A stretch of DNA of 64,000 nucleotides. It comes from a virus. The stretch's first letter is position 1, and each line of letters begins with the position of its first letter. Shown here piece after piece: positions 19,583 through 56,622 of this stretch. The notes under the pieces are model-generated. The model saw only the letters and a list, made by a program, of their open reading frames with translations. It was not told the DNA's origin and made no database searches. The stretch is taken from IMG/VR virus record IMGVR_UViG_3300028909_000017, positions 1 to 64,000 of that record; one strand, given 5' to 3'. A program made the position numbers and the translations under genes.

Positions 19583-20091
19583 ATATTTTCTTTTCAAGCG
19601 ATCATCATTTCGATCATGATAGAATTATTAATTATTGCAATAGGCCGTTTAGATATGTTGAGGAAATGAATGAACGATTAATTCACAATTGGAATGTACG
19701 AGTTAAGCCCGATGATGAAGTTTATTATTTGGGAGATTTTGGCCTGCGTGGGCCGGAACAATTATTACCTTTTAGACGTCGTATGAATGGCAATTGGAAG
19801 ATTTTTGTTGCAGGAAATCATGATAGAAAAACTGTATTATCAGATGGTGAATTAGCGGATAAAATAATTAAATTTTCGCCAACTACTTTTCATTTACTGA
19901 AGCTCGACAATATTAACTTTAGCTTGAGTCATTGTCCATTGAATATTATACCGGGAACGACAATTAATCTTTTCGGTCATACTCATCAACCTAATGCGCT
20001 GCAATCATCCAATTCGATTAATATTGGTGTGGATGCATGGAATATGTTTCCCGTTGAATTATCGGAAATTAAAAATCTAATTAAACCTTAA
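19579..20091 (+). CDS. Calcineurin-like metallophosphoesterase
   Basis: 170 residues from the ATG at 19579, which overlaps the previous stop. Metal-binding motifs appear in order: SSDHHFDHDR (1), YYLGDFG (2), VAGNHDRK (3), SLSHCPL and FGHTHQP (4, 5). This is a small single-domain phosphoesterase of the type found in many phages; substrates could be cyclic nucleotides or modified nucleotides. It shares an operon with family A genes. A second, different phosphoesterase lies at 42674. Confidence 0.85.
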   Translation: MNIFFSSDHHFDHDRIINYCNRPFRYVEEMNERLIHNWNVRVKPDDEVYYLGDFGLRGPEQLLPFRRRMNGNWKIFVAGNHDRKTVLSDGELADKIIKFSPTTFHLLKLDNINFSLSHCPLNIIPGTTINLFGHTHQPNALQSSNSINIGVDAWNMFPVELSEIKNLIKP

Positions 20092-20719
20092 AATAATTGG
20101 AAATTAAATCGATATAATATCTACTGATAGCTATATATTCTCCGTGTATAGCTATTTCGTTGCCTGATAATAAGGCTTCTGAAAGATTATTATTTTTAAA
20201 TCCAAAATCATTAATAAATTTATCTGATTCTTCTCTGGATGGAATATTTTTGATTGAATATTTTTTAACCGAATAGCAATTATATAATTCATTAGCTAGT
20301 ATTTTACTACTACCGATATCTGGTATTTTTTTACTCCAGGTAAAAGAAAAACCATTAATTGGGAATATTATATAGATCAATCCAAATTCCCTTGCCTGAC
20401 TTTCGGCAGTTGTGCATAAAATACTATTTGTCCTTAATGCAGTAAATCCTGATGTTTTTAAAAATAAATCTAACATTGCTTGCTGGGGTTGGGATTGCCC
20501 AGTGGGATTTCTATTTATCGGGGATTGAGTTTTGAATAATGGTGTTTTTGAAAATTTTGGATCAAGGCCACGATATAAAAAAGTTTCTGTTCCTTTTAAT
20601 GCCGTTAAAAATTCCGAGCAATTTTCATCAATATACTCTAGTGCCGTATAGATATCTTCTTCGGAAATTTCCGGTGGAGTCGGTTTTTTCTTTTTGAATA
20701 TTATTTCATTAATGCGCAT
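20081..20719 (-). CDS. Putative ADP-ribosyltransferase paralogue (ART-1)
   Basis: 212 residues. The seven paralogues share FLYRG (Arg50 here), about 45 residues later SLR(S/T)NSI (RTNS at 96-99), FPINGFSFTWS, and near the end a Glu-Ile-x-Ile-His-Gly block (Glu188). The order Arg, Ser/Asn-Ser, Glu matches the R-S-E triad of mono-ADP-ribosyltransferases such as T4 Alt/Mod, though the first Glu of ExE is missing. The protein begins MRINEII, a possible head-targeting leader. A late box 4 nt upstream suggests late, leaderless expression. Function is inferred. Confidence 0.6.
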   Translation of the reverse strand: MRINEIIFKKKKPTPPEISEEDIYTALEYIDENCSEFLTALKGTETFLYRGLDPKFSKTPLFKTQSPINRNPTGQSQPQQAMLDLFLKTSGFTALRTNSILCTTAESQAREFGLIYIIFPINGFSFTWSKKIPDIGSSKILANELYNCYSVKKYSIKNIPSREESDKFINDFGFKNNNLSEALLSGNEIAIHGEYIAISRYYIDLISNYFKV

Positions 20720-20723
20720 GTTT

Positions 20724-20732
20724 GTATTTATC
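20724..20732 (-). promoter_or_regulatory. T4-like late promoter box
   Basis: GATAAATAC, 4 nt before the ATG of ART-1. The TnpB element inserted directly upstream, so its end abuts this box. Confidence 0.5.
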
Positions 20733-21970
20733 GGTGAACTACCACGTCCTTAAGGACGTGGTATCCAGGAGCAATTGCTCCAAGAATTTGTTCCTGCTTC
20801 AATAATACATAATTAGGTATACCAGTTACACCATTAGAGGTATCTCCACAGGCGTTATATTCGGACAGTTCCTGCCCTATAATTTTAAGACCGAATGCTT
20901 TAATATTTAATGCGGCATTATAATCCCGATCAATAGATAAACCACATGACGGGCAATTATAAGTTCGCAGATTTAAAGGCATTTTTTGTTTATAACCACA
21001 AGAAGAACATATCTGTGAACTAGGAGCAAAGCGATTTATTTTAATCAATTGCCCACCTGCCCATTCGAGTTTATAAAACAAATAACCCAGGAACTGCGAC
21101 CATCCCTGATCTGAAATTGCCTTTGCAAGGCAGTGATTTTTAGTCATGTTCTTTACTGCAAGATCTTCACAAATAATAATTGAGTTTTCTTTGGCTATCT
21201 GAGAACTAATTTGATGAAGAAAATCTTTTCTTTGAAATCTTACTTTTCTATGTAACTGAGCTAATTTAATTTTTGCTTTTAATTGATTTTTACTACCTTT
21301 TTGTTTACGAGAATATTGTCTTTGGTATTTCTTTAATTTCTTTTCACTTGCTTTAAGATATTTTGGTGATTCATAAATCACTGCATTACTATCGACTATG
21401 AAAGTTTTAATTCCGAGATCTATTCCAGTTATGTCATTACCAATACTTTCGACTTGTTTTACTTCCGGGCAATAATCCGTTTCACAAAGGCATGACACAT
21501 ACCACTGTTCCACATCTCGTGTTATAGTTATAGATTTTAAATTGCCAATCATTTCCCGATGGCGAATCCATTTAATTTCACCCAATTTCGGTATTTTAAT
21601 GAATTTGGGTCCTATTTTAATATGCCCATTTGTTTGTGACATTCGTATGCCACTTGGAGTTTTATGCTTAGATTTAAATTTCGGAAATCCAAATTTTGAT
21701 TTATAGCAGTTCTTTAGTGCTTGATCTAATTGAATGCATGTTTGCTGTAATGATTGACTTGGAGCACTTATCCAATTATATTGCTTTTTTAAATCGGGCA
21801 ATTGATTTGCCATATCAAATTTAAAAATGAATTTCTTTTCTGCGTTATACCTTGTTATGTTTTGGTTAAGAAATTGGTTCCAAATAAATCTTAATTGCCC
21901 CCTGCCATTCGATCAAAGTTTTCTCTTGTCCGTTGGTTGGCATTAATCGATATTTGAATGACTTTAACAT
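20728..21970 (-). pseudogene. tnpB: TnpB RNA-guided nuclease, frameshifted near its N-terminus
   Basis: The main frame (21813-20728, 361 residues) has the RuvC-like region: GIDLGIKTFIV (first catalytic Asp), EDLAVKNM (Glu), and RDYNAALNI (last Asp), with a four-Cys zinc ribbon (CSSCGYK and CPSCG). The true start is MLKSFKYRLMPTNGQEKTL at 21970; it is joined to the main frame (FIWNQFLNQN) by a one-base shift near 21885. The C-terminus (HVLKDVVVHR) is encoded by the right-end hairpin and the stop lies in flanking DNA. TnpB cuts DNA guided by omega RNA. Confidence 0.85.
20734..20870 (-). ncRNA. Probable omega RNA (reRNA) of the TnpB element
   Basis: By analogy to known TnpB elements, the guide RNA scaffold is the 3' part of the tnpB transcript ending at the right end (GTAGTTCAC); the next bases outside, CGATAAATACAAACATGC, would be the guide. 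The 5' limit is approximate. Confidence 0.4.
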
Positions 21971-22050
21971 ATGTGTATTTATTCTTTTAAAATTAACTAC
22001 TTAACTCGATTATATTCACTAACTAAAGTTGGTGGTTATGCGCTCGTGAA
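20734..22050 (-). mobile_element. IS605/IS1341-type element carrying tnpB, no tnpA
   Basis: The right end at 20734-20763 is GTGAAC plus a perfect hairpin (TACCACGTCCTT / AAGGACGTGGTA). The left end at about 21975-22050 contains TTCACTAACTAAAGTTGGTG and TGCGCTCGTGAA. Related ends occur at 18311-18420 and 32855-33150. No transposase of the TnpA (Y1) type is present, so movement would need help in trans. Confidence 0.8.
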
Positions 22051-22062
22051 TTAGAGATAAAT

Positions 22063-23004
22063 ATGTTTATGGATAATTTAAACTTAATACCGGGTGAGCA
22101 AAAGATTTTTACTCGCACGCCAAAAAATATTGCAGCAAATAATATTTTTAAAACGAACGATAAAAATTTGCAGAAGAGATTAACCCATCTATGTAATTTT
22201 ATCGATGAAAATTGCTCGGAATTTTTGGGTTATGCAAAGCAAACCAAAAAATTATTATATCGTGGAATTAAAGATAAAACTGCCGGAAATATTTTTCTGG
22301 GATATTCAAGAAATAATCGCCATCCGAAGGATACAAATAGTACAATTCAAAAATTAGTTGATGAATATCTAACAATTGGTGGATTTAATGCATTGAGGTC
22401 AAATAGTATTTTTTGCATTGGAGATCCTAATGATACATCGGTATACGGTAAACCATTTTTAATTTTTCCGATTAATGGATTTGATTATTTATGGAGTATA
22501 GACCATTACGACTGGGTTATTTATCCTGCAACATTATCTCCCAATTTTCTAGAATTAGGTCAATTATTTAGTGATATTAGAAGATATTTTAATCATTCGG
22601 CACAATATGATGCTGTATCAGGAGATTTTAAAAATTTTTGGTATTCAGGACCAATCTATAATCTTTTAAATGACTTTATGAATACTTCAGATGGAGAAAA
22701 TTATATTTTTCAATTAGAACAATTGCAAAAATTATTTTCTGATATTGAAACAAAATATTCAGAATCTGGGCCAGCTATTACTAAATTTCTTGAGTCGAAT
22801 ATGTATTTTAAATCAGTTAATATGATTAATAATTCTTTAGATCCAAATATTGCATCTAAAGAATTTATACAATTTAATAAAATTACAAATACTCATTTCG
22901 AAACAGCTCTAAAACTTAATCATGAAATTTTAATTCATGGAAAATATGTAGCCGTAAATTATGAAATGTTTTATAGATATCTCAAAAATTATTTTTTGGA
23001 TTAA
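22063..23004 (+). CDS. Putative ADP-ribosyltransferase paralogue with insert (ART-2)
   Basis: 313 residues, the longest copy. It has LLYRGIKDK, ALRSNSIFC, FPINGFDYLWS and NHEILIHGKYVAV. A roughly 90-residue insert (around YDAVSGDFKNFWYSGPIYN) separates the middle and end motifs, partly resembling ART-5 (EIWFSGPAY). It is the only copy on the plus strand in this cluster, lacks the MRIxEI leader, and its start lies about 15 nt from the TnpB element left end, so its 5' end may have been replaced by the insertion. Confidence 0.55.
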   Translation: MFMDNLNLIPGEQKIFTRTPKNIAANNIFKTNDKNLQKRLTHLCNFIDENCSEFLGYAKQTKKLLYRGIKDKTAGNIFLGYSRNNRHPKDTNSTIQKLVDEYLTIGGFNALRSNSIFCIGDPNDTSVYGKPFLIFPINGFDYLWSIDHYDWVIYPATLSPNFLELGQLFSDIRRYFNHSAQYDAVSGDFKNFWYSGPIYNLLNDFMNTSDGENYIFQLEQLQKLFSDIETKYSESGPAITKFLESNMYFKSVNMINNSLDPNIASKEFIQFNKITNTHFETALKLNHEILIHGKYVAVNYEMFYRYLKNYFLD

Positions 23005-23702
23005 TTTCGACGTTGACTATTTGGTCTGATATAATTTCTTCCAATACCGCTAGCCGGTTTAGATTTTACACCTTTCATAATTGCTTGGGCTTCAATACTA
23101 GGTGGTGTCAATAAAAATTTATTAATTTTCTTTCTAGCAGAGTTTAGTTCATTTATATCAATATCTTCATTGTTATTATGTACTAACGCAAAAGTATTAC
23201 CAAATAATAATTTATATAAATCAATATTTTTAGATGTATTTTCATATGCTTCTTCAAAATAATCAAGATCAACTTTACGATTAATATCTTCCGGATTATT
23301 TGATGTTACTAGTCTACTCTTAATTCTTTGTTGGGCGATATTTTTGTCTACCTCTATAAAAAGCATAAATGTATTATAATAATTTTCTTTTAATTTTTTA
23401 TTTAGTCGGATAATTGAATCTGCATTTCGTCCCGTTGCATTTGCAATTAATCCTAGATAATTATCAGCATATAAATTAAGTCTTTTTTCTGTTGTCTGAC
23501 CGGCTTGGGGATAAGAATGGTTTAATGATTGAAGATACATAATAGTTTTATCAACGTTTAATGATTTTAAGCCGAGCGTTTGTAGTCCTAATAAATGTTC
23601 TATGGTAGTTTTACCACTTCCCGGAGCGCCGCATAAAAATATTGATCGAAAATTATATCGATCATACGGCCCCTCATTTAATAACACTTCATTTATTTTC
23701 AT
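23001..23702 (-). CDS. P-loop kinase with packaged-protein-type leader
   Basis: 233 residues. FRSIFLCGAPGSGKTTIEHLL gives Walker A (GAPGSGKT); an R-rich lid region follows (AQQRIKSRL). It resembles small phage kinases or zeta-toxin-like kinases; substrate unknown. It begins MKINEVLLNEGPYD: the MKIxEV leader is shared with the ART paralogues, and the LNEGPYD string recurs in phage P-loop proteins I recall. The basic C-terminus (NYIRPNSQRRN) may bind nucleic acid. It overlaps the broken ART-3 by 1 nt. Confidence 0.7.
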   Translation of the reverse strand: MKINEVLLNEGPYDRYNFRSIFLCGAPGSGKTTIEHLLGLQTLGLKSLNVDKTIMYLQSLNHSYPQAGQTTEKRLNLYADNYLGLIANATGRNADSIIRLNKKLKENYYNTFMLFIEVDKNIAQQRIKSRLVTSNNPEDINRKVDLDYFEEAYENTSKNIDLYKLLFGNTFALVHNNNEDIDINELNSARKKINKFLLTPPSIEAQAIMKGVKSKPASGIGRNYIRPNSQRRN

Positions 23703-24312
23703 TATTTTATCCCAAAATGTTTTGAAAGTAACTTATGGTATTTATCGGAAAGTGCAACATATTGGCCGTGAATTGTTATTTCATTTTTACTTTTAAGTGC
23801 CTGAGTGAAATTTGTATTCTTAAAATTCCAATATTTTATTAGTAAACTACCCGGATATGCCGTTAATGTATCTTCTATTTTACTGGCACCCATATCATTA
23901 ATTTTTGGGCTCCAAGTAAAAGAAAAACCATTAATAGGGAAAATATGAAATAATTCACCAAACCCATATTGATCATTATTGTCTGATGTGCAATACTATT
24001 GGATCGTAAAGAAGTGAACCCGGCTTGTTTTAAAATTTTATCTAATAGTATGATACTGTAGAAGCCGCTAACTGATTCACGATGGGTTGGAGTCATACTA
24101 AGAAATACTTTTGAAACGCCTGAATCATAATTTATTCTACGGTACAAAAATGTTTTTGCTTTTTTCATATCAATAATCGATTCATCACAATGAGAATCAA
24201 TGAAAGACATTATTTTATCGACATATTTTTCATAGCTTTTATATGCGCCATGCTCATCTGACCAATTGTCTGGAATTTTTTTCCCAAACGGTTTAATCTC
24301 ATCTATTCTCAT
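23702..24312 (-). pseudogene. Putative ADP-ribosyltransferase paralogue, frameshifted (ART-3)
   Basis: Starts MRIDEIKPFGKK; FLYRRINYD and SLRSNSI are in the first frame. The rest (HIFPINGFSFTWS then NEITIHGQYVALS) continues in another frame. Adding one T in the ATTGC at about 23990 restores the usual NSICTSDN spacing. Either a dead gene or a sequencing error. The 5' end overlaps ART-4 by 4 nt. Confidence 0.65.
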
Positions 24313-25016
24313 ACGGTTATTCCAAAATGTTTTTGTATTTGCTTGCCATATTCAAAATTAAAAACTATAGCTACATATTGCCCATGAATTGATATTTCGT
24401 GGTTACTTTTTAATGCTTGTGATAAATCGTCATTTTTATATTGCATGTCTTTAACGAATTTTGCAACTGATGGTTTAGGTAGATTGCCTGTATTAATGTC
24501 AGGTCGATTTGCTTCTGGGAAGATATAATATTTCGGAAATAATTTCTTTAATGTAGAACTTAATATGGTTGACCCTCCTACATCTCTGATAAAATTGCTC
24601 CAAGTAAATGAAAATCCATTTAAGGGGAATATAAAATATGGTGTACCCCAATCTTTAACAAAACTTAGATCTGTTGTAGTGCAAATTGAATTGGTTCTTA
24701 ATGATAAAAATCCTGCACTAGATAAAATTTTATCAAATATTTGTTGATGTTGTAAGCCTTGCCCCTGTGGAATTCTATGTTTCGGAGAAGTTGCAATAAA
24801 AATTTGTGGAGCTTTACCTTGTGGTATTGCTCGATATAAAAAGTTGTTGGACCGCCGAACAGCCGAGCAAAATTCCGAACAATGATTTTCAATAAATTCT
24901 AAAACATTTTCAATTTTTTCCGAAGAATAATTATTAATTCCTCCGATGTCGGGAGAGTAGACATCTATAATATCCCTTTTATTATCAATCGGTTTAATTA
25001 TTTCAAATAATCGCAT
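24309..25016 (-). CDS. Putative ADP-ribosyltransferase paralogue (ART-4)
   Basis: 235 residues from the ATG at 25016 (MRLFEIIKPID); a longer frame to 25061 lacks support because a late box (TATAAATAC) lies directly before this ATG. Key positions: Arg62 (FLYRA), Arg107-Thr-Asn-Ser110, FPLNGFSFTWS at 130-140, Glu207 in NHEISIHGQYVAI. This copy has all conserved blocks and is a good reference for the family. Confidence 0.6.
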   Translation of the reverse strand: MRLFEIIKPIDNKRDIIDVYSPDIGGINNYSSEKIENVLEFIENHCSEFCSAVRRSNNFLYRAIPQGKAPQIFIATSPKHRIPQGQGLQHQQIFDKILSSAGFLSLRTNSICTTTDLSFVKDWGTPYFIFPLNGFSFTWSNFIRDVGGSTILSSTLKKLFPKYYIFPEANRPDINTGNLPKPSVAKFVKDMQYKNDDLSQALKSNHEISIHGQYVAIVFNFEYGKQIQKHFGITV

Positions 25017-25020
25017 AATA

Positions 25021-25029
25021 GTATTTATA
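25021..25029 (-). promoter_or_regulatory. T4-like late promoter box
   Basis: TATAAATAC, 4 nt before the ATG of ART-4. The stop codon of ART-5 (TAA) is inside the box. Confidence 0.6.
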
Positions 25030-25774
25030 GTTTTTTGAAATATGCCGGACCAGAAAACCAAATTTCATTATTTCCTGGAAAATTTTTAATTTCCGACAAT
25101 TTTTTAACCTTAAATTTATTTTTATTTGGATCAAGCATGGCGTCTAACACAGCAGTAAACGAATTATAGTGATTTGATGAAGATATGTACTGATCGATTA
25201 TTTCAAAGATGTATTTAAATTCTAAATCATTCTTCGGATGTAATTTATAATTTTTCCATCTTATATCAAGTTTTCTTATTTCAGATCTTAATATTGGTAA
25301 ATCATCTTTAAAATTTGTCCCAAAGCATACATTAAGATCGTAAAAAAGTGAAGAAAACTCTCCTAGAGAATCTATATTGTTTGATTTTTCAAAAGACCAC
25401 CATAAATCTCCATCGGGACAAATTCCAATTATAGGATCACCAACCGGAAATACTTGATAGATTTTTCCATATGCGGAGCAGTCAATCATATCTGAAGAAC
25501 ATATGAAACTGTAGGATCTTTTCGGATAAATTTTCCATTTAGGTAAAATATAATCCATTAATAATGTATAATAATTTTTTGTGTTTACAGAAGTTCTTTT
25601 AAATAATTTAGAATTACCATACAGTAAACTACGTTCATTACGAATTCCACGATAAATTTTAAATGGGGAATTAAACTCAATTGGACATTTTTTCGATAGA
25701 AATTCATCGATATTATTTTTTGGAATTTTAACAGTCGATGTTCGACTTTTTGCTAATATTTCGGTTATTCTCAT
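25025..25774 (-). CDS. Divergent putative ADP-ribosyltransferase paralogue (ART-5)
   Basis: 249 residues starting MRITEILAKSR. The motifs are degenerate but in order: FKIYRGIRN, SYSFICSSDM in place of SLRSNSI, YQVFPVGD, and EIWFSGPAY at the very end in place of EIxIHGxY. It shares the WFSGPxY and central features with the insert of ART-2, so these two form a subgroup. It is co-transcribed with ART-6 upstream (2 nt gap). Confidence 0.5.
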   Translation of the reverse strand: MRITEILAKSRTSTVKIPKNNIDEFLSKKCPIEFNSPFKIYRGIRNERSLLYGNSKLFKRTSVNTKNYYTLLMDYILPKWKIYPKRSYSFICSSDMIDCSAYGKIYQVFPVGDPIIGICPDGDLWWSFEKSNNIDSLGEFSSLFYDLNVCFGTNFKDDLPILRSEIRKLDIRWKNYKLHPKNDLEFKYIFEIIDQYISSSNHYNSFTAVLDAMLDPNKNKFKVKKLSEIKNFPGNNEIWFSGPAYFKKL

Positions 25775-25776
25775 AT

Positions 25777-26451
25777 CTATTTCCTTTTAAATTTCGCGTC
25801 GATTAACGGTGCAAAATTATTATATGATATAGCTACATATTGCCCATGAATGGAAATTTCTTGGTTACGTATTAATGCTGCTTCGATATAATTATTATGA
25901 AATTTCCATTGGTCGATAAATTCTGTTGCATTCTCGTATGATAATTTTAGAATTGCACGATTTTCGTAGTTATCGCCGCTCGGCGCAAAATTTAATAGAG
26001 CTTGATGTAATTCATAATCTCCTCCGATGTCTTTAACTTTTTCACTCCAAGTATATGAAAAACTATTTAACGGAAAAATATAATATGGACTTCCCCATTG
26101 TCTTGCGGTCCATATTGTAGGTGTAACAGAAATTGATGTTGATCTTAATGATTTAAATCCAACTAATTTAAAAATATTATCCAATATTTTTTGTGTTGCC
26201 GGTGTTTGTCCTTGTGGCCGTCGATTAATTGGAGTCGTTGCAATAAAAATTTTGCCAGCAGAATTAATACCACGATATAGGAAAAAACCGGTTTGCTGAA
26301 AAACTTTAATAGCATCAGAACAATGCGTTGATATAAAATCTAATACATCTTTGATTTTATCGGCATCATACTGTTCAATATGTCCTACTCCCGCTTCCGA
26401 GTCATCAACTTTTTCAATATCAATCGGATTTATTAATTCAAATAATCTCAT
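25777..26451 (-). CDS. Putative ADP-ribosyltransferase paralogue (ART-6)
   Basis: 224 residues starting MRLFELINPIDIEK. FLYRGINSAGKIF, NRRPQGQ, SLRSTSISV, FPLNSFSYTWS and NQEISIHGQYVAIS are all present. The SLRSTSI block is the closest in the set to the canonical S-T-S motif of ADP-ribosyltransferases. A late box lies 4 nt upstream of the ATG. Confidence 0.65.
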   Translation of the reverse strand: MRLFELINPIDIEKVDDSEAGVGHIEQYDADKIKDVLDFISTHCSDAIKVFQQTGFFLYRGINSAGKIFIATTPINRRPQGQTPATQKILDNIFKLVGFKSLRSTSISVTPTIWTARQWGSPYYIFPLNSFSYTWSEKVKDIGGDYELHQALLNFAPSGDNYENRAILKLSYENATEFIDQWKFHNNYIEAALIRNQEISIHGQYVAISYNNFAPLIDAKFKRK

Positions 26452-26455
26452 ACTT

Positions 26456-26463
26456 GTATTTAT
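26456..26463 (-). promoter_or_regulatory. T4-like late promoter box
   Basis: ATAAATAC, 4 nt before the ATG of ART-6. Confidence 0.5.
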
Positions 26464-26488
26464 TTTTATTTTACTATATAATAATTAT

Positions 26489-27037
26489 ATGAATATTAAA
26501 AATTACCCCGATATAATGTTAGACCTGGAAACGCTGGCCACAACTCCAAATGCAAAAATTTTATCTATTTCGGCAGTTGCATTTGATCCACATGAATTAT
26601 CAGATGATTTAACACAAAATCCAAAGTTAGATTTACTATTGGATTTAGATGAACAAGAAAATCGGTACGAAGATCCTGATACCGTAGAATGGTGGGCAAA
26701 ACAAAGTCATGAAGTCCAGAATAAGATTTTTAGTGATACCGGTAGAGTAAAAGTTGATGATGCTATTTCTCAACTTTCAAAATTTGTATGGAATAAAGAT
26801 AGATTGTGGGCCCAAGGCATAGCGTTTGATTTTCCAATTCTTGAAAATTTATTTCGTGAACGCAAGAATAGTATTCCTTGGCAATATTATAAGGTTACTG
26901 ATAGTAGAACTATACGAGCATTGGTTGACTGTCCGGTATATAAAACATCACACGATTCTCTAGACGATTGTTATAATCAGATCAAGAGTGTCCAATATGT
27001 TTTACATGAATTAGGAATTACAAAATTTGTTAGATAG
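26489..27037 (+). CDS. dexA: DexA-like 3'-5' exonuclease
   Basis: 182 residues from the ATG at 26489. DEDD exonuclease motifs: IMLDLETLATTPNAKI (Asp, Glu), WAQGIAFDFPIL (Asp) and HDSLDDCYNQI (His, Asp). The LxDLETLxTxPxAxI start and the length match T4 exonuclease A. It degrades single-stranded DNA 3' to 5', helping recycle host DNA. It is followed 3 nt later by 27041-27676, probably one operon. Confidence 0.85.
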   Translation: MNIKNYPDIMLDLETLATTPNAKILSISAVAFDPHELSDDLTQNPKLDLLLDLDEQENRYEDPDTVEWWAKQSHEVQNKIFSDTGRVKVDDAISQLSKFVWNKDRLWAQGIAFDFPILENLFRERKNSIPWQYYKVTDSRTIRALVDCPVYKTSHDSLDDCYNQIKSVQYVLHELGITKFVR

Positions 27038-27040
27038 ATA

Positions 27041-27676
27041 ATGGAAAATATTGAATTAACGGGTAGACAACGATTTAATGAAACCTGGCTTTTTGAAATG
27101 CCGTATGGGATAGGAAGTTTTCAAAATTTTGATGGAATTGTTTTTAATATTACCGATCTTTTAGATAATAGACAAATTCCGGAAAATTTGGGTAATAATC
27201 TTAATCGAATTCAATTGAACAATACTGCATATTTTTGGATGGAAAGAGATAATGTAATTCAACTTGGCGTGGAATTACAGAAACACCCAGAAGGATGGTC
27301 GGTTGCAATGACTGGAAAAAATCCACGGTTAAAAAGAAAACCACCATTTGCAAGTGATCTATATTGCGAAATTTTAAAATACCTAAAAAGTAGTATTCGA
27401 TTACTCAGCGATACACAGTTAAGCGATGAGGGTTTTGACATTTGGAAGCGTTTATTGAAGGATGGAAATACAATATCGATTTATGACAAAAATTTACCGG
27501 GAAAAACTTTTAAAACGATTCACACGGAAGAAGAATTAGAAAATTATTTTTCAAAGACAGATTTAAACTGCAAGGATTATCAATATATTTTAACCGAAAC
27601 TAGTTATTTGGCCGAAATGAGATCAAATTTTAATACTCGAAGATATCGAGAATTGTCAGGATTATTGATGGAGTAA
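27041..27676 (+). CDS. Conserved phage protein, unknown function
   Basis: 211 residues. It starts with a segment ending ETWLFEMPYGIGSF, then contains HPEGWSVAMTGKNP and RLLSDTQLSDEGFDIWKRLL, strings I associate with conserved hypothetical proteins of T4-like environmental phages. The (S/T)DxQLSxxGxxIWKRL block looks like an active-site or binding segment but the chemistry is unknown. The end, YQYILTETSYL, is similarly conserved. Co-transcribed with dexA. Confidence 0.6.
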   Translation: MENIELTGRQRFNETWLFEMPYGIGSFQNFDGIVFNITDLLDNRQIPENLGNNLNRIQLNNTAYFWMERDNVIQLGVELQKHPEGWSVAMTGKNPRLKRKPPFASDLYCEILKYLKSSIRLLSDTQLSDEGFDIWKRLLKDGNTISIYDKNLPGKTFKTIHTEEELENYFSKTDLNCKDYQYILTETSYLAEMRSNFNTRRYRELSGLLME

Positions 27677-27705
27677 AAAAGGAGACCTATATAGGTCTCC
27701 TTTTT
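27675..27705. terminator. Bidirectional terminator
   Basis: Hairpin AAAAAAGGAGACCTA / TAGGTCTCCTTTTT between converging genes. Confidence 0.85.
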
Positions 27706-28427
27706 CAGTCTTTAACAACGTTTCCATTTGGACCAAGTTTGCCCTCTACTCCAATAGTCGGTAATTCTAATAGATTGGGCCCATCAAAATATTTCAGCAA
27801 TAAATGTTCTATATCTTTATATTGATTAATATCGAGTGATGAAGTAAATTCTTCGATCATTAAATTGTATCTTGACAAAACCAATGATGTATTTTTTGCA
27901 TCCCATGACCATAACCGCGACATTAATTGATAAATTAATCCACCGGTAGTTTGTGGGGGGAATTGACTCAATCTTCGTTTACAAAAGATATATTTATTTG
28001 ATTTATTGAAATTTTCGATATTAAAACTGTCAGATAATAAATATCTTCCGCTAAGTTTAAAAACACGATCAATACCATTTAACATTTGTGGTTGTTTGGT
28101 TAGAATAAAATCCAAAGTTTTACATGTTACTATCATTTCGGTAAAGTTTTTAACTATGTCGAAATTTTTGCCATATAATTTATATATTTGTTGTACTGTT
28201 TTATCATCATTATAATTAATTAATCCGGTTAAATGAGGTCCAATTAATAATGATTCATTTTCAGATAATGCTGCTTCGGCTCCGCTGTCTGAAACAATAA
28301 TTTGAGCATCAGGAATTTTCGCTGTAATACTTTTTAATGTATCAATTGTTTGATTTAATCGTTCTTCGGCTGAAAAAACTCCATGAACTGTGTGGATGGC
28401 CGATGATACTAGAAATAATGTTTTCAT
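27705..28427 (-). CDS. Putative glycosyltransferase-like protein
   Basis: 240 residues. It begins TLFLVSSAIHTVHGVFSAEERLNQT and has VFKLSGRYLLSDSFN and FPPQTTGGLIYQL. The layout (a Rossmann-like start, then FKLSGRY) resembles sugar-nucleotide-dependent transferases of environmental phages, from general memory rather than a firm motif. It overlaps or abuts the next upstream gene (2 nt gap), a second protein of similar type. Possible targets are virion proteins, DNA bases or the cell surface. Confidence 0.45.
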   Translation of the reverse strand: MKTLFLVSSAIHTVHGVFSAEERLNQTIDTLKSITAKIPDAQIIVSDSGAEAALSENESLLIGPHLTGLINYNDDKTVQQIYKLYGKNFDIVKNFTEMIVTCKTLDFILTKQPQMLNGIDRVFKLSGRYLLSDSFNIENFNKSNKYIFCKRRLSQFPPQTTGGLIYQLMSRLWSWDAKNTSLVLSRYNLMIEEFTSSLDINQYKDIEHLLLKYFDGPNLLELPTIGVEGKLGPNGNVVKD

Positions 28428-28429
28428 TG

Positions 28430-29263
28430 TTACTCCAGATTAAAAATGTTAGGATATCTTTTAGCAAAGTTATTACGTAATAGAATCCAATGTTCTAATA
28501 ATTCAAAATGTTTTCCAGAAATTGCGGCTAATTTGATAGCTGACAATGCTCGTATTTCATCCATTATTTCTTCAGGTAATTTTGTTTTGTTTAATAATTC
28601 TTCTTTGGAATATTGATAAATTTGATATTTAATGCCGGATGAGATATTAAGAAAAATTGAAAGTAATCGTTCAATTACGAATGTATAATAAGGTAAAGAA
28701 CCGTTTGGTCCGTAATGAGCTCCGGTGTCAAACATTAATTTTGAATCATTTGGATTATTTTTAACTTCATTAATAAAGTTATTTACAAATTTAAGATAAA
28801 CAGGCCAAAAAATATTATCACCCACAAAGTAATTGCATAATGCAAATGAAGTTGAATCCATTAAAATTTGATCGACATTAATTGGAATATTCATTCGATT
28901 CATTACCCGCTGAATTAGATCTGTTAATCCGGGATGACAATTATTACCTTGTACAATTACCGATGGAAATAAACATTCATTAAGGGGGCATGGGTTTACA
29001 ATATAAACATTTGTACTTCCGGGAGTTATCCAGTCATAGAATTTTTGCTCAGTTAAACCAGATTTTTCTGAAAATTTCGGACTTAAAAACCCCCAGTAAT
29101 CTAGTTGTTCTTTTTGCGCTAATTTAAAGCCTTCGTTGAAAATTGGAAATTCACATAATTTTGGATTTTCATTTTTTAAATTATCATATGGTACAAATGG
29201 TTTTTTTACTTTTTCCATTTGATCATTGAGATAACATATTTGGTATAATTTAATTTTAATCAT
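28430..29263 (-). CDS. Putative polysaccharide/glycosyl-modifying protein
   Basis: 277 residues. YQICYLNDQM at the start, LDYWGFLSPKFSEKSGL, YIVNPCPL, VQGNNCHPGL and FVIERLLSIFL recall bacterial proteins found in capsule and glycan gene clusters, often next to glycosyltransferases. No catalytic residues can be named. It forms a pair with 27705-28427, so a glycan-related function for both is a reasonable guess. Confidence 0.4.
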   Translation of the reverse strand: MIKIKLYQICYLNDQMEKVKKPFVPYDNLKNENPKLCEFPIFNEGFKLAQKEQLDYWGFLSPKFSEKSGLTEQKFYDWITPGSTNVYIVNPCPLNECLFPSVIVQGNNCHPGLTDLIQRVMNRMNIPINVDQILMDSTSFALCNYFVGDNIFWPVYLKFVNNFINEVKNNPNDSKLMFDTGAHYGPNGSLPYYTFVIERLLSIFLNISSGIKYQIYQYSKEELLNKTKLPEEIMDEIRALSAIKLAAISGKHFELLEHWILLRNNFAKRYPNIFNLE

Positions 29264-29294
29264 GATGATTAATTATAACATGTCTGACAATATA

Positions 29295-29303
29295 GATAAA
29301 TAC
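29295..29303 (+). promoter_or_regulatory. T4-like late promoter box
   Basis: GATAAATAC, 4 nt before the ATG at 29308 of the nucleotidyltransferase. Confidence 0.55.
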
Positions 29304-29307
29304 AAAT

Positions 29308-30017
29308 ATGAAGATAAAAGAAATTATATATGAAGGTGGTAATGTATGGTCCGGTTAATTGGCGACCATTCGTATTCGTCGTGAGCAAGTTCTTCCGACA
29401 GTTAAATTTTTAGAAAAAGTAACTGGATTACCGCTAGAAAATAATATGTTGGGTTCTACGGGCATTAAAGAAACATCAGGAGACATAGATTTGGCCGTGG
29501 ACAAATCTATAATAACCAAAGATGAATTACTTGCTAACATTAGGAAATGGACGGAAAAACATAATGTTACAGATATAATGCCGGCTAAAAAAGTCGGTAG
29601 TAGTGTGACTATGCGATGTCCAATATCTGGTAACCCTAGAAATCAATTCGTTCAAGTCGACCTTATGTTTTGCTCCAATATTGAATTTGCCCGATGGGCA
29701 ATAAGAGCTAATACGGATAGCAAATATAAAAATTTAGTTAAAAATAAATTGCTTTATAATTTGGCAAAATCAATGAATTTACGGTATCAAGAGCAGGAAG
29801 GGTTAACAACATTAGATACTAAAAAACTTTTAAAGAACGGAAATAATCCTGATTTTATCGCCAAAAATTATTAAATACTAAAGCTACGAGAAAAGATATT
29901 GAATCAGTAGAGGGCATTATGAATGCACTAAAAAATGATCCAAAAAAAGAAGATAAACTTCGGTTTGCATATCCGGCAGTATTAGCCGAAACCGGTGTCG
30001 ATTTGAGACAATTATGA
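29308..30017 (+). pseudogene. Nucleotidyltransferase-like protein, broken by an in-frame stop and a frameshift
   Basis: It begins MKIKEIIYEGGNVWSG, then an in-frame TAA at 29356, then LATIRIRREQVLPTVKFLE. The GSTGIKETSGDIDLAVD block is the G-S(x)n-D-x-D metal site of a polymerase-beta-type nucleotidyltransferase. The end (NTKATRKDIESVEGIMNALK) is in another frame, joined at the A5 run near 29872. The leader and gene layout match proteins of T4-like phages I recall. A short product could start at the TTG at 29359. Overlaps ART-7 by 4 nt. Confidence 0.6.
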
Positions 30018-30622
30018 AAATAAATGATTTTGAAAAATCTATTTCACTTCGATTATTGGAAATAGAAGAAGACGTAATAAATGATATTCTATCGAATTGT
30101 TCTAATTCGATTAAAGTCTTTAAAGAATATAATGAATTATTGTTTTCCGGGATGGTTAATAGAGGTACATATTTTACTTTTATAGATCATTCCCCAATTC
30201 ATAGGAGACCTAGGGGAATGTCGATAGATGAGCAGGAATATATAGATGAATGCCTAACATTAGCAGGTTTTAGCGCATTAAGAAGTAATAGTATATTTTG
30301 TATTTCTGATTATAGCCAGGCTAAAAATTTCGGAGATGCTTTTATAATTATTCCTATTAATGGATTTTCTTTTACAGGAATTAATAGCAGACGATATCTT
30401 AACTATGTCTCCCTTCCGGATATTTCAGGGGATGACGGTGTAACTATAGATATGGCAGATTTTATTGTACGTAACTATGGTTTTTTTCATGATGATTTTG
30501 CTCATGCAGTGTTTTCTGAGAATGAAGTAATGATTAATGGATCGTATCGAGCATTAAGATTAAAATCCCCCGGAACTAAGAGGATATTGAAAAAATTAGG
30601 GTTAGATATTAAACAAAGGTAA
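30014..30622 (+). CDS. ADP-ribosyltransferase paralogue lacking the motif Arg (ART-7)
   Basis: 202 residues starting MKINDFEKS. It keeps HRRPRGMS, ALRSNSIFC, IPINGFSFTG and NEVMINGSYRAL, but the FLYRG block reads LLFSG, so the conserved Arg is Ser45. If the family does ADP-ribosylation this copy is probably inactive or has changed activity. It is translationally coupled to the nucleotidyltransferase (ATGA). Confidence 0.55.
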   Translation: MKINDFEKSISLRLLEIEEDVINDILSNCSNSIKVFKEYNELLFSGMVNRGTYFTFIDHSPIHRRPRGMSIDEQEYIDECLTLAGFSALRSNSIFCISDYSQAKNFGDAFIIIPINGFSFTGINSRRYLNYVSLPDISGDDGVTIDMADFIVRNYGFFHDDFAHAVFSENEVMINGSYRALRLKSPGTKRILKKLGLDIKQR

Positions 30623-30630
30623 ATATAATC

Positions 30631-32133
30631 ATGAGATACGTTGAATTATTAGAAAGCGGCAGTCGAGGATTGTTTGTAAGATGTCAAGAAGCCGCGGCTG
30701 GAAAAAAAATTGTTTTCAAAAGTCAAGAAGGAAAAACAATTACAGCTATCGGAGTTGCTGTTTTGCCGGAAAAATTTGCATTTTATGAAAACGATACTAT
30801 AAATGATTTGCCGATTAATGCAAGGTCACTTCCTCCCTTTGAACAAAAGAAATTGTTAAAAACTGGTCAACAAAAATTAATGGATTCTCTGGAACAATAT
30901 CGGTTGACTGCAAAAATTACAAATAATAATTGGAATATTGTTAATAGTAATGGACGTTCAGCACTTATTACTTTATGGACAAATAATCGCAATCAATTAA
31001 TTGCTTATGTTAAATTGTTTCAGCAAAAAAGTTTAAGTGCAATTCCATTTTTTTGGAGTAATAGTGATTTTTCTAAAGATACCGGTTTTTCCATTGAAAA
31101 TGTTTCTCAATTAAAGGCTGCATTGAATTTAAAGCCTTCTACGGTTGTTGGGGTGGATGCAAGATTTTCTATTGATGATTTATTAGAACAAGTTTCAATT
31201 AATATTGTTGAACATACTGAATTACCTGCAGAAGTTATTAAACAAGTTCCACAATTATTAAGAAATGTTCAGTCTGGGTTCAGTGAACCAACGGCGAATG
31301 CTGCTCAATATATTAACTCGTATGAAGTTGATTTAGGAGAAACTGCCGCACCCATTGCATTTATGACTGGTCATTTTGTTTCGGGCGCATATAAACAGGT
31401 TGAAGATCAGTTGTTAAAACCATTGGGATCTAGCTGGAAGAAAATTAAGACCTGTTCGTTCCCGATGGCAGGTAATGAGCAATTAGTTGATAGTTATCTT
31501 AATATAAATGCTTCAACCAAAATAGGAATAAGTTCAAAAGATTCTGGTGGCGGCGCGGCTGCGAGCGTGACAAGTTTATCTTCAGTAATTGAAAAAAATC
31601 CTGAACGTTTTAAAGATTTATTAAATAAAAAAAAATACAAGTATTTGTTTAATGTAATTAACTTGATAAAAGAAAAATCCGCCGTTGAAGGTCCATTGGA
31701 ATTGGGCGTATTATATGGAATAATTGATCGAGCAGATCAAATTAAAATTTTAGAGGCAACCAACGATCCACATTTAATTAAATCAGATGTAACTAAAAAA
31801 TTACAAAAGTTATTAAATAACCCGATTTATAAGCCCAATACAAAATCGCCTAATTATATGATTGGCTATCATTTATTGACCGCTGTTGCTAATTTAGTAA
31901 CGGAACATTTGAATGAACAAGAAGATACGGTGACTGCATTTTTTAAAGAAATTTTATCTCGGTCAAACATGGTTCAGTGTAAAACAATAATGAAGTCGAC
32001 TGGATCTGCCGCTGCATTTATAGATTTTAATATAATTTGGCCACCCGTTTTTGAAGGCAAAGTGAAGTTTCAAAGTCAAAAAAATTACGGTTCTGGAAAA
32101 CCTGGTGGAAAAATATGCTTTAAAATAGGATAA
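30631..32133 (+). CDS. 500-aa protein with packaged-type leader, unknown function
   Basis: Starts MRYVELLESGSRG, again close to the M-R-x-x-E-(I/L) leader. It follows ART-7 by 8 nt. The middle holds a striking ISSKDSGGGAAASVTSL string at about residues 302-318, which looks like a nucleotide- or metal-binding loop but matches no family I can name with confidence. A late-like GTAAATA lies just before the ATG. Likely a virion-associated protein. Confidence 0.6.
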   Translation: MRYVELLESGSRGLFVRCQEAAAGKKIVFKSQEGKTITAIGVAVLPEKFAFYENDTINDLPINARSLPPFEQKKLLKTGQQKLMDSLEQYRLTAKITNNNWNIVNSNGRSALITLWTNNRNQLIAYVKLFQQKSLSAIPFFWSNSDFSKDTGFSIENVSQLKAALNLKPSTVVGVDARFSIDDLLEQVSINIVEHTELPAEVIKQVPQLLRNVQSGFSEPTANAAQYINSYEVDLGETAAPIAFMTGHFVSGAYKQVEDQLLKPLGSSWKKIKTCSFPMAGNEQLVDSYLNINASTKIGISSKDSGGGAAASVTSLSSVIEKNPERFKDLLNKKKYKYLFNVINLIKEKSAVEGPLELGVLYGIIDRADQIKILEATNDPHLIKSDVTKKLQKLLNNPIYKPNTKSPNYMIGYHLLTAVANLVTEHLNEQEDTVTAFFKEILSRSNMVQCKTIMKSTGSAAAFIDFNIIWPPVFEGKVKFQSQKNYGSGKPGGKICFKIG

Positions 32134-46672: not shown

Positions 46673-48085
46673 ATGTTGAAAAAAATTTTATTTCTAACTT
46701 TTTTGTTATTTCCATTACTTGCCAGTTCTCAAACGGTTGCTGGAATACATAATGGTGGAACCGGAGCATCAACTGCTAATGGAGCAATGACTAATTTGGG
46801 AATGTCTCAGAGTGGAACAATCGGAACAGGATCCCAACACGATTCACTTTCAGGAACTCTTAATGTAGCTGGTACTATTATGTCGGGGACTTTACCAATT
46901 TATTCTGTACATATTGGACCATTGGGAATAATGACTTCATCTTGGAATTTTGACACAACTACGGCAGCATCGGCTTGCGCAAGTCTGGGAGCATGTGCGG
47001 GGGGAACAGTTACCTCCTTTACTGCATCTTCAGGCACTTGGCCGACATGGCTAGTTCCCACGATAACTAATTCAACTTCTGCTCCGGCTCTTTCGGTAGT
47101 CGCATCATCCATTCCTAATAGTGCTTTATTGAATCCTTCCACAACTGTGAACGGACAAACTTGTACATTAGGTGGAAATTGTACTATAAGTACAGGATCA
47201 GGCACAGTAACAATTTTTGGGGCGACAACGGGAAATTGGCCTTCTTGGTTGGTTCCATCTGTAACAAACCCTAATACGACTCCTTATTTATCAGTATCTG
47301 CTAGCGCAATTCCTAATAGTGCATTGGCTAACTCTTCAACTACAGTTAATGGGCAGAACTGCGTACTTGGCAGCAATTGTACAATAAGTATCGGATCAGG
47401 AACAATTACGGGTGTAAGTGCCGGAACCGGCCTTTCTGGTGGAGGAACAAGCGGTAACGTAACATTAACAAACTCCTCTCCAATGGTTTTTCCGGGATTG
47501 GCTGGTATTCCAAACTTTAATGGATCGGGATGGGGAACAAGTTATAGCACTTCGGGTAGCGGAACTGTTGTGGCTTTAGCAAATAATACTGCATTAACTG
47601 GAACTCCAACTGCACCAACACAACCATGCTTGCCTAATACCAATATTGCAACAACTGCATATGTTTCGAATTGCCCGACAGGAGCTGGTCAATCGGCCTT
47701 GAGTGCTCAGAGTGTTCGGCCGCTTTGCGACACTGTTACAGTCTCCGCTGTGACGGAAGTCGATTACACCGTGACCGGCGCGATCACGCTCTACGCCAAT
47801 GCCAGCTACTCGACTATCGCCGCAGGCATCACCGCGGCCGCCCAGAATCTTGCGCTTACACTTGCGGCAAACATCGAGCAGGACATAGTCCTGAGTCAGT
47901 GGCAATCAGCTCTCAGCGTGTCTGGCGTCTACGATATGCAACTGCCGCTAGCTGCGAACATCGGCGGTACACCACTCACCCCAACTTCTGACGGCAGTTT
48001 CTTGCTCACGGCGGGACAATGGGCAAACTGCACAGGCATCAACCTCACAATCGTTATGGGCACAACGAACCAACCAGTAAACTAG
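46673..48085 (+). CDS. Fibre protein with N-terminal signal-peptide-like segment; mosaic of AT- and GC-rich DNA
   Basis: 470 residues. A typical signal peptide (MLKKILFLTFLLFPLLASSQ) is followed by HNGGTGASTANGAMTNLG, a common fibre repeat, then two near-copies of SSGTWPTWLVPTITN / TTGNWPSWLVPSVTN. LTGTPTAPTQP(x)n-IATTAYV is another fibre signature. From about 47685 the DNA changes abruptly to GC-rich and the last 130 residues lose the Asn/Ser bias. The C-terminal part was probably swapped in by recombination. A fibre with a signal peptide is unusual. Confidence 0.75.
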   Translation: MLKKILFLTFLLFPLLASSQTVAGIHNGGTGASTANGAMTNLGMSQSGTIGTGSQHDSLSGTLNVAGTIMSGTLPIYSVHIGPLGIMTSSWNFDTTTAASACASLGACAGGTVTSFTASSGTWPTWLVPTITNSTSAPALSVVASSIPNSALLNPSTTVNGQTCTLGGNCTISTGSGTVTIFGATTGNWPSWLVPSVTNPNTTPYLSVSASAIPNSALANSSTTVNGQNCVLGSNCTISIGSGTITGVSAGTGLSGGGTSGNVTLTNSSPMVFPGLAGIPNFNGSGWGTSYSTSGSGTVVALANNTALTGTPTAPTQPCLPNTNIATTAYVSNCPTGAGQSALSAQSVRPLCDTVTVSAVTEVDYTVTGAITLYANASYSTIAAGITAAAQNLALTLAANIEQDIVLSQWQSALSVSGVYDMQLPLAANIGGTPLTPTSDGSFLLTAGQWANCTGINLTIVMGTTNQPVN

Positions 48086-53016: not shown

Positions 53017-54108
53017 TTAATCCTCTCGAAATGTTTCAGTTGATTTGGGTTCAATTAATTTCCAGATGGTATTAGATACATCTTTCCCATCTAACAAACC
53101 AAATAAAATTGCTGAATAATATTTGTGATCTGATTGCAAGAAATATCTAGCAATGTCCTTACGTGTAGAGAATACTGGCATACGATCAAAAATTCGTTGT
53201 GCATCCGTTAGAATTGTGTAGTAATCACCATCTAATTGAGAATTCCATTTTCGTAGCCAGGTTATAAATCCTGACGGCATTTTAGGATCGGTTAGCCAAG
53301 ATGAAATTTCATCATCCTTGCTCTCTTTTTTCAATTCCCAAATGCTACGGGGATTTAATCCAGTTAAAATTCTATGGAGCTCGCAATAATTTTCGAATTT
53401 TAACTTTACTTTAAGACCATTGTCGAAAGTTGCGACATACCCTTCTTGGTTGGGAATATTTTCACTCATGCAGGTATTCAATAATTTTTTATGATCTTGC
53501 ACAAGTTTAAGATTCATTGCTTGACAATAGGATTTTAAATCTGAACGAGATAATTCTTTACCGGTTGAATTATTAATTGCCCCGATAACAATTAGTCCCT
53601 CAAAATCATATTCAACAACAATACGATTTTCGGGATAAATTATTTCGGTTAAAAGAGTATATTCTTTTAATAAATCAAGTCGGGGATAATTTTTTTGTAA
53701 CCAATTAGTTGCCCACAATGATTGATCGCTCGCAAATGATCCACGTGTTGCAACATAATTTTGATCTTCCCATTTATATAAAATTCCCAGAGAACCATCC
53801 ATTTTTGTCGTAATCGAAGAAATATTAGTGGGTAGATTTTTTTCTAAAGTTTCAGGATGCCGATCATCATTAATGTTCCAAAATTTTGGAAACGGCCTAG
53901 CGATAATTTCCATTGTTTCAGTATTAAAAATTAACCCTCGGCAGATGTTCATTTCCTGACCCCAAACCAAATCTTTATCATATTGAGCGGTTGGGGTATA
54001 ATTTAAAATTGCGAGAGGGAATGAAGAATGAAATTTCCTCGAAATTTGGCGAGAATTTATCAATGATTCAAGTATATCGATATCTAAGATTTCATTTAAT
54101 TTCGTCAT
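53017..54108 (-). CDS. rnlA: RNA ligase 1 (T4 Rnl1 family)
   Basis: 363 residues. Nucleotidyltransferase motif I TKMDGSLG with Lys102, RGLIFN upstream, motif III-like LLTEIIYPENRIVV, motif IV EGYVATF and motif V LKVKLKF. The helical C-terminal domain is typical of T4 Rnl1. It seals 3'-OH and 5'-phosphate RNA ends after Pnkp (56623) has healed them, restoring tRNAs cut by host anticodon nucleases. Its start overlaps the stop of a 30-residue peptide gene. Confidence 0.9.
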   Translation of the reverse strand: MTKLNEILDIDILESLINSRQISRKFHSSFPLAILNYTPTAQYDKDLVWGQEMNICRGLIFNTETMEIIARPFPKFWNINDDRHPETLEKNLPTNISSITTKMDGSLGILYKWEDQNYVATRGSFASDQSLWATNWLQKNYPRLDLLKEYTLLTEIIYPENRIVVEYDFEGLIVIGAINNSTGKELSRSDLKSYCQAMNLKLVQDHKKLLNTCMSENIPNQEGYVATFDNGLKVKLKFENYCELHRILTGLNPRSIWELKKESKDDEISSWLTDPKMPSGFITWLRKWNSQLDGDYYTILTDAQRIFDRMPVFSTRKDIARYFLQSDHKYYSAILFGLLDGKDVSNTIWKLIEPKSTETFRED

Positions 54109-54184
54109 ACATATCTTCCTTTTTACATCCGTCTATCATGATTATACAAATTAATCCCATCATTATATTTGCTAATGTTGTCAT
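54092..54184 (-). CDS. 30-aa membrane peptide upstream of RNA ligase
   Basis: MTTLANIMMGLICIIMIDGC then KKEDMYDEIK. A strong GGGAGG site and a consensus promoter 20 nt upstream support expression. The IDGC could be a lipobox. Its stop overlaps the ligase ATG, so it may couple translation. Confidence 0.5.
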   Translation of the reverse strand: MTTLANIMMGLICIIMIDGCKKEDMYDEIK

Positions 54185-54203
54185 TATATTCCTCCCAACG
54201 ATT

Positions 54204-54232
54204 ATTATATGATACGAAACAGTTAATGTCAA
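54204..54232 (-). promoter_or_regulatory. Sigma-70-type promoter of the peptide/RNA ligase unit
   Basis: TTGACA (54227-54232), 17 nt, TATAAT (54204-54209). Confidence 0.75.
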
Positions 54233-54234
54233 AT

Positions 54235-54880: not shown

Positions 54881-54884
54881 TCTG

Positions 54885-56311: not shown

Positions 56312-56339
56312 TTACTCCATACTTAAATTTTAACATGCT

Positions 56340-56612: not shown

Positions 56613-56622
56613 TTATATCTCC

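What the first reader, a model, noticed from the sequence alone, without database searches (positions are those of the whole stretch)
20081..30622. Seven-member family of putative ADP-ribosyltransferases
Seven paralogues (20081, 22063, 23702, 24309, 25025, 25777, 30014) share FLYRG, SLRSNSI, FPINGFSFTWS and a final E-I-x-I-H-G block. The order Arg, Ser/Asn-Ser, Glu fits ADP-ribosyltransferases. T4 has three (Alt, ModA, ModB); seven diverged copies would be an unusually large effector set, perhaps aimed at different host proteins.
Basis: partly seen in the sequence, partly recalled or inferred. Interest (0 to 1): 0.85.

Follow-up and report, generated by a model that had tools for sequence, protein, structure and literature searches.

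The report
Leader-tagged ART-like phage effector array
A giant bacteriophage carries a cluster of related, fast-diverging proteins that look like very distant ADP-ribosyltransferases and start with a short tag resembling the one phage T4 uses to pack proteins into its head, suggesting a pre-loaded kit of enzymes delivered into the bacterium with the DNA.

Summary
The paralogues are real. Six intact copies and one frameshifted copy lie at 20081-30622, and an eighth lies at 67017-67799 of the same 125-kb viral contig. They fall into two subfamilies (phrog_11975 and phrog_12810, both 'unknown function') that recur as arrays of 4-13 copies in the jumbo-phage records searched, including Agrobacterium phage Atu_ph07. 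ADP-ribosyltransferase (ART) identity is plausible but not proven. R-S/T-E order, predicted topology and sub-significant profile matches to T4 Mod/Alt in the correct register support it. Both AlphaFold models are confident, yet Foldseek finds no ART (or any other match) in the PDB. It resembles T4 capsid-targeting sequences and contains the L/I-x-E cleavage motif of the gp21 prohead protease (115/145 members against 8.5% at internal methionines). The leader is phage-specific and shared with unrelated genes: zeta-toxin-like kinases, a Pfam-recognised ART, proteases, amidoligases. Best reading: an injected, head-packaged effector arsenal in which an ART-like family has repeatedly expanded. Packaging is inferred from sequence, not measured here.

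The parts
20081..20719 (-). ART-like type A paralogue (212 aa); leader MRINEII, FLYRG, ALRTNSILCTT, FPINGFSFTWS, NEIAIHG
22063..23004 (+). ART-like type A paralogue (313 aa) with a long insert before the Glu strand; LLYRG, ALRSNSIFCIG, HEILIHG; no clear leader
23001..23702 (-). zeta-toxin-like P-loop kinase (233 aa) with leader MKINEVLLNE|G; the same kinase is fused to ART-like domains in Atu_ph07 gp053 and L065
   Evidence: Pfam PF06414 2.6e-13
23702..24312 (-). frameshifted type A paralogue in two ORFs (23875-24312 and 23702-23893, shift at about 23963-23973); leader MRIDEIK
24309..25016 (-). ART-like type A paralogue (235 aa); leader MRLFEII; FLYRA; HEISIHG
25025..25774 (-). ART-like type B paralogue (249 aa, phrog_12810); leader MRITEIL; KIYRG, PKRSYSFICSS, NEIWFSG; AF2 pLDDT 90.7
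25777..26451 (-). ART-like type A paralogue (224 aa); leader MRLFELI; FLYRG, SLRSTSISVT, QEISIHG; AF2 pLDDT 88.1, pTM 0.85
30014..30622 (+). ART-like type A paralogue (202 aa), Arg lost (LLFSG), Glu kept (NEVMING); leader-like MKINDFE
30631..32133 (+). 500-aa protein of unknown function with leader MRYVELLE|S directly downstream of the 30014 paralogue
29308..29358 (+). leader ORF MKIKEIIYEGGNVWSG closed by an in-frame TAA, directly upstream of nucleotidyltransferase-like ORF 29359-29874, whose relative L038:5697 carries an intact leader

Best explanation
The cluster is one array of a jumbo-phage-specific effector family. Each protein is a short N-terminal targeting leader followed by one compact domain of ART-like topology. 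Proposed mechanism: the leader carries the protein into the prohead core, as the T4 Alt/IPIII capsid-targeting sequences do. A gp21-type prohead protease trims it after L/I-x-E. The mature protein is packed with the genome, injected at infection, and uses NAD+ to modify host targets (or hydrolyses NAD+). Repeated tandem duplication and fast divergence let each phage carry many versions for different targets or host alleles. Shown here: the paralogue family, the leader, its L/I-x-E motif, its phage-specificity and its sharing with unrelated enzymes, and a T4-type prohead protease in large relatives. Inferred: packaging, cleavage, injection, NAD+ use and targets.
For: LEADER: [LI]xE ends by residue 12 in 115/145 non-redundant members, against 60/703 internal-Met positions and 16% of shuffles. 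The leader DNA pattern occurs 26 times in this contig with 0 for the reversed-pattern control, and 13 against 0 in Atu_ph07. At comparable body identity, leaders are 48% identical within a contig and 21% between contigs, and 24 unrelated genes share their own contig's leader where 3.1 are expected. Leader-tagged non-members include zeta-like kinases, a C39 peptidase, amidoligases and an ART-PolyVal above its curated cut-off. Peptidase_S77 (T4 gp21) is present in 8/27 records, including Atu_ph07. In T4, the first 10 residues of IPIII suffice for packaging, and gp21 cuts after L/I-x-E (PMC9026906). Atu_ph07 virion mass spectrometry found 29 proteins in the CDS 31-76 cluster that contains the array gp053-063 (PMC6102473). 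ART: YRG Arg conserved at 93%/89%, Glu 96%/100%. Both models give the order beta(YRG)-beta-helix-beta(S/T)-helix-beta-beta-...-beta(E)-beta. hhalign: trimmed type A against T4 Mod E 1.7e-4 at YRG, while true homologues Mod against Alt give only 1.3e-4 and the best control 0.008. A separate local hit falls on the STS...A..F block.
Against: Foldseek against the PDB found nothing for either model (best E 0.7 and 1.3), although the same program recovers family members in the viral library. No member reaches an ART Pfam or PHROG family; the single DRAT hit is E 0.0025 in one member. Type B profile matches to T4 ARTs are no better than controls. The YRG Arg is lost in 30014 and is Lys in the eighth copy. 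The window's own leaders fit L/I-x-E at residues 3-5 but lack the longer IPIII form, and no prohead protease was found on this 125-kb fragment. Which Atu_ph07 array members are in the virion could not be read.
Confidence: 0.55

Rival explanations
1. Head-packaged, injected effectors as above, but the domain is not an ART: it is a new enzyme fold with a conserved three-Arg/Glu pocket that uses another substrate.
For: No ART match by Foldseek to the PDB for two confident models. Extra near-invariant residues not typical of T4 ARTs: R77, R103, P127 and D141 in type A; R60, S62, R86 and D123 in type B.
Against: YRG...S/T...A..[YF]G...E order, size and secondary-structure order match ARTs. In-register sub-significant matches to Mod, Alt and FRG profiles.
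Confidence: 0.25
2. The leader is not a packaging signal. The proteins are ordinary early-expressed ARTs like ModA/ModB, and the shared N-terminus reflects gene duplication or a translation-start preference.
For: The window leaders are short and AT-rich, and ModA/ModB act without packaging. No direct proteomic assignment was available here.
Against: The leader is shared with unrelated genes of the same phage and differs between phages at the amino-acid level, which neither duplication of the ART gene nor codon preference explains. L/I-x-E is strongly enriched. The array lies inside a mass-spectrometry-confirmed virion gene cluster in Atu_ph07.
Confidence: 0.15
3. Structural or scaffolding proteins: internal head proteins without enzymatic activity, expanded for DNA condensation or core assembly.
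For: Leader and virion-cluster location fit any internal head protein. Several window copies have changed the YRG motif.
Against: Strongly conserved polar residues (Arg, Arg, Arg, Asp, Glu) suggest an active site. Fusions to zeta-like kinases and leader-sharing with clear enzymes. Rapid within-phage diversification is typical of arms-race effectors.
Confidence: 0.05

Closest known systems
Phage T4 Alt (head-packaged RNA polymerase ADP-ribosyltransferase)
   Same: Proposed delivery route (propeptide, prohead core, gp21 processing, injection). Alt starts MELITEL, like MRITEIL here; YR(S/G), STS and E order.
   Different: No significant sequence or fold match; single compact domain of 200-310 aa instead of 682 aa; 4-13 copies per phage; lacks the ExE form (second Glu only) and has extra conserved Args.
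Phage T4 ModA/ModB
   Same: Size, [YW]RG, S/T block followed by A..F, Glu strand near the C-terminus; best profile match.
   Different: Mod proteins have no packaging leader and come as one pair; the match is sub-significant.
T4 internal proteins IPI-III and their capsid-targeting sequences
   Same: About 10-residue N-terminal tag ending in L/I-x-E (MITFKQFLSE in L037/L048/L067 resembles the T4 tag) shared by unrelated cargo.
   Different: Here the tag sits on many genes per phage, with a different phage-specific version in each lineage.
FRG domain (PF08867, ART superfamily, antiviral/NADase candidate)
   Same: hhalign aligns helix-YRG-...-R over 67-102 columns at E 0.007-0.013, placing the family's second conserved Arg near FRG's PSLxR Arg.
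   Different: Not significant and partly lost on trimming; FRG is found in bacterial proteins, this family is essentially phage-only (one small MAG contig).
phrog_11975 / phrog_12810
   Same: These are the family itself; the members scanned match one or both.
   Different: No function was assigned to either PHROG.

Membership tests
ART superfamily (R-S-E clade, T4 Alt/ModA/ModB type) | Conserved Arg on the first core strand ([YW]R[GS]) | tested here: met
   R at 93% (type A) and 89% (type B, rest mostly Lys); lost or changed in two of eight copies of this contig
ART superfamily (R-S-E clade, T4 Alt/ModA/ModB type) | STS-like Ser/Thr on the second core strand | tested here: inconclusive
   Block RSNSIFCT / RSxSICST present, but the candidate Ser is Gly in 25% of type A; C[ST][TS] in type B
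ART superfamily (R-S-E clade, T4 Alt/ModA/ModB type) | Catalytic Glu on the fifth core strand, often ExE | tested here: inconclusive
   One Glu at 96-100% at the strand start; the first E of ExE is absent
ART superfamily (R-S-E clade, T4 Alt/ModA/ModB type) | Split-sheet ART fold | tested here: inconclusive
   Order of strands and helices fits in both models, but Foldseek against the PDB gives no ART match
ART superfamily (R-S-E clade, T4 Alt/ModA/ModB type) | Significant sequence-profile match to a known ART family | tested here: not met
   No Pfam/PHROG ART family reached; hhalign to Mod/Alt only sub-significant, best E 1.7e-4 with probability 49%. Hence not filed as a member, only as ART-like
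ART superfamily (R-S-E clade, T4 Alt/ModA/ModB type) | NAD+ dependent ADP-ribosyl transfer | not testable with these tools
   needs biochemistry
T4-type capsid-targeted internal head proteins | Short N-terminal leader with L/I-x-E cleavage motif | tested here: met
   115/145 against 8.5% null; phage-specific and shared with unrelated cargo
T4-type capsid-targeted internal head proteins | gp21-type prohead protease encoded by the same phage | tested here: inconclusive
   Found in 8/27 records including Atu_ph07 and several of the largest; not on this 125-kb fragment
T4-type capsid-targeted internal head proteins | Protein present and N-terminally cleaved in mature virions | not testable with these tools
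   Atu_ph07 virion cluster CDS 31-76 includes the array (PMC6102473), but the protein list (its Table S5) was not readable

The most novel reading that the evidence does not exclude
Jumbo phages of several lineages use a lineage-specific T4-like capsid-targeting tag as a bar code for a large injected arsenal (about 20 tagged genes in this contig). Its backbone is a hitherto unrecognised, repeatedly expanded ART-like (or wholly new) enzyme family, often paired or fused with zeta-toxin-like kinases. The tag makes the injected proteome of uncultured phages readable from sequence.
Probability: 0.5. Interest if true: 0.85.

Novelty: new variant of a known kind. Interest (0 to 1): 0.74.

Why it matters
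T4 injects Alt and three internal proteins. Here many tagged proteins per phage, with an ART-like family amplified to 4-13 copies, suggest that jumbo phages deliver a broad enzymatic attack before any gene is expressed. The leader gives a simple sequence test for which of the many unknown jumbo-phage proteins are injected. Two PHROGs of unknown function gain a testable hypothesis, and reanalysis of published virion proteomics could confirm or kill it.

Tried and rejected
Pfam, PHROG and PDB-sequence searches with single members and profiles: no ART. The DRAT lead (E 0.0025) was followed across 36 records, gave one weak hit extending past a stop codon, and was dropped as chance. Foldseek against the PDB was negative twice; the viral library served as a positive control and showed the tool works. 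The first hhalign run was in global mode by mistake and was discarded, then redone locally with controls. FRG looked attractive at full length but weakened after trimming, so it is kept only as a lead. Cellular origin: one scan of 84,980 species found a single 5.8-kb MAG contig, so the family is treated as phage-specific. The first search for related loci attempts found nothing until closer alignments were used.
Full report
1. What is there. The window is the first 64 kb of G000, a 125,414-bp IMG/VR virus contig. They are intact at 20081-20719(-), 22063-23004(+), 24309-25016(-), 25025-25774(-), 25777-26451(-) and 30014-30622(+), plus one copy at 23702-24312(-) broken by a single frameshift. 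An eighth lies at 67017-67799(-). Pairwise blastp E-values reach 1e-54. All match phrog_11975; 25025 and the eighth copy belong to a second clade (phrog_12810 for 25025), which profile comparison shows is homologous to the first (hhalign 99.7%). Motifs are less uniform than stated: YRG becomes YRA, YRR, FSG or YKG in four of the eight copies.

2. Relatives. Agrobacterium phage Atu_ph07 (490 kb) has a tandem array gp053-gp063 of the same family, with two-domain (gp054) and zeta-kinase-fused (gp053) members. IMG/VR scans gave 59 loci with about 170 distinct members. Searched records hold 4-13 copies each. A tree of 119 members shows the two old clades, each expanding separately inside individual phages: three window type A copies (support 95), four Atu_ph07 type A (97), four Atu_ph07 type B (98), four copies in L017 (99) and four in L028 (99) (quick tree, careful search not finished). 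One scan of 84,980 bacterial and archaeal species found one small MAG contig. The family is therefore a phage-specific, repeatedly amplified, fast-evolving one.

3. The leader. Nearly every member begins with a short tag: M[RK][IL]xE[IL] in this contig, M[RK]W[HEQD]QL[TNI]E in Atu_ph07, MRAIELYE in L047, MITFKQFL.E in L037/L048/L067, M[RK]FK.YL.E in L026 and M[RK][LF][QN][QK]Y in L043. [LI]xE ends by residue 12 in 115 of 145 non-redundant members, against 8.5% at internal methionines and 16% in shuffles. DNA patterns for the tag occur 26 times here and 13 times in Atu_ph07, with no match to the reversed pattern; about five of the 26 here open no gene of length. Leaders of paralogues in one contig are 48% identical while those in different contigs with similarly diverged bodies are 21% identical, and 24 non-member genes share their own contig's tag where 3.1 are expected. 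Tagged non-members include zeta-toxin-like kinases (window 23001-23702, PF06414 2.6e-13; L026, L043), an ART-PolyVal protein above its curated cut-off (L047:2995, MRYIELSE), a C39 peptidase, amidoligases (one at 88088-89263 of this contig) and nucleotidyltransferases. In the models the first 10-20 residues are of low confidence (about pLDDT 50), as expected of a removable tag.

4. Comparison with T4. T4 internal proteins carry 10-19-residue capsid-targeting propeptides; 10 residues of IPIII suffice; gp21 cuts after L/I-x-E; Alt is packed and injected (PMC9026906). Gp21-type proteases (PF03420) are in 8 of 27 records, including Atu_ph07 at 2.6e-22. The Atu_ph07 array lies inside the CDS 31-76 cluster in which 29 proteins were found in virions by mass spectrometry (PMC6102473); the list itself was not readable, so membership of the array is not shown. 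Alt's own N-terminus, MELITEL, is close to MRITEIL in this window.

5. Is the domain an ART? For: a conserved YRG Arg, a Ser/Thr block followed by A..[YF]G, and a near-invariant Glu at the start of a C-terminal strand, in ART order. Two confident models (pLDDT 88.1 and 90.7) give the same strand/helix order, which fits the published ART core description (PMC9503650). hhalign places type A on T4 Mod at YRG (E 1.7e-4 trimmed) and on the S/T...A..F block (E 8e-4), where true homologues Mod and Alt reach only 1.3e-4 and the best of 19 control families 0.008-0.014. Against: Foldseek found nothing in the PDB for either model while recovering family members in the viral library at TM 0.5-0.7; no Pfam or PHROG ART family is reached; type B is not above controls. 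I put ART-like fold at about 0.65-0.7 and leader-directed packaging at about 0.75.

6. Mechanism. Most likely: synthesised late, drawn into the prohead core by the leader, trimmed, packed, injected, then acting on host proteins or NAD+ at once. Expansion and loss of Arg in some copies suggest target diversification and pseudo-enzymes. Shown: family, leader, statistics, protease in relatives. Inferred: packaging, cleavage, injection, chemistry, targets.

7. Novelty. ARTs in jumbo phages and packaged ARTs in myoviruses are known in general (PMC7824862, PMC9503650), and at least 10 ARTs in Bacillus phage G has been reported. I found no description of this family as ARTs, nor of a lineage-specific capsid-targeting tag marking a large mixed effector set, in the papers that could be searched; subscription papers were not covered.

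Noticed in passing
window 20728-21813 (-): IS605 OrfB/TnpB-like gene (PF01385 1.6e-24, PF07282 6e-23) sits inside the array between two ART-like copies and lacks the leader.
   Followed up: no
window 29308-29874 (+): A 16-aa leader peptide MKIKEIIYEGGNVWSG is separated by an in-frame TAA from a nucleotidyltransferase-like ORF; the relative L038:5697 (32%) has an unbroken leader MLPKFSSFISEGGN, and the relative gp065 lies next to the ART-like array in Atu_ph07.
   Followed up: partly
window 27041-27676 and contig 90124-90798, 91262-91450, 92188-92547, 93376-93660, 98082-98753, 118133-118801: A second paralogue family (about 7 copies, several broken) with a conserved R..FNE[ST][WFY]L.E.P stretch after the leader, perhaps a second L-x-E processing site.
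   Followed up: no
G000 96796-97515 (-): Leader-tagged protein with a VAHELTHILQDHL metalloprotease-like motif (weak eCIS_core / DUF2201 Pfam matches).
   Followed up: partly
window 48000-50500: GC rises to 54% against about 31-35% elsewhere, over a large surface-protein-like gene and neighbours: probably recently acquired.
   Followed up: no
window 53017-57558: Run of RNA-ligase-like and polynucleotide-kinase-like genes (by eye), suggesting an RNA-repair cassette.
   Followed up: no
L047: One phage locus carries at least three other ART-like proteins with the same leader (L047:2995 ART-PolyVal, L047:11079 PARP-like 0.0016, L047:6021 YHGT), next to a leader-tagged cytidylyltransferase-like protein (L047:2429), perhaps an injected NAD+ toolkit.
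   Followed up: partly
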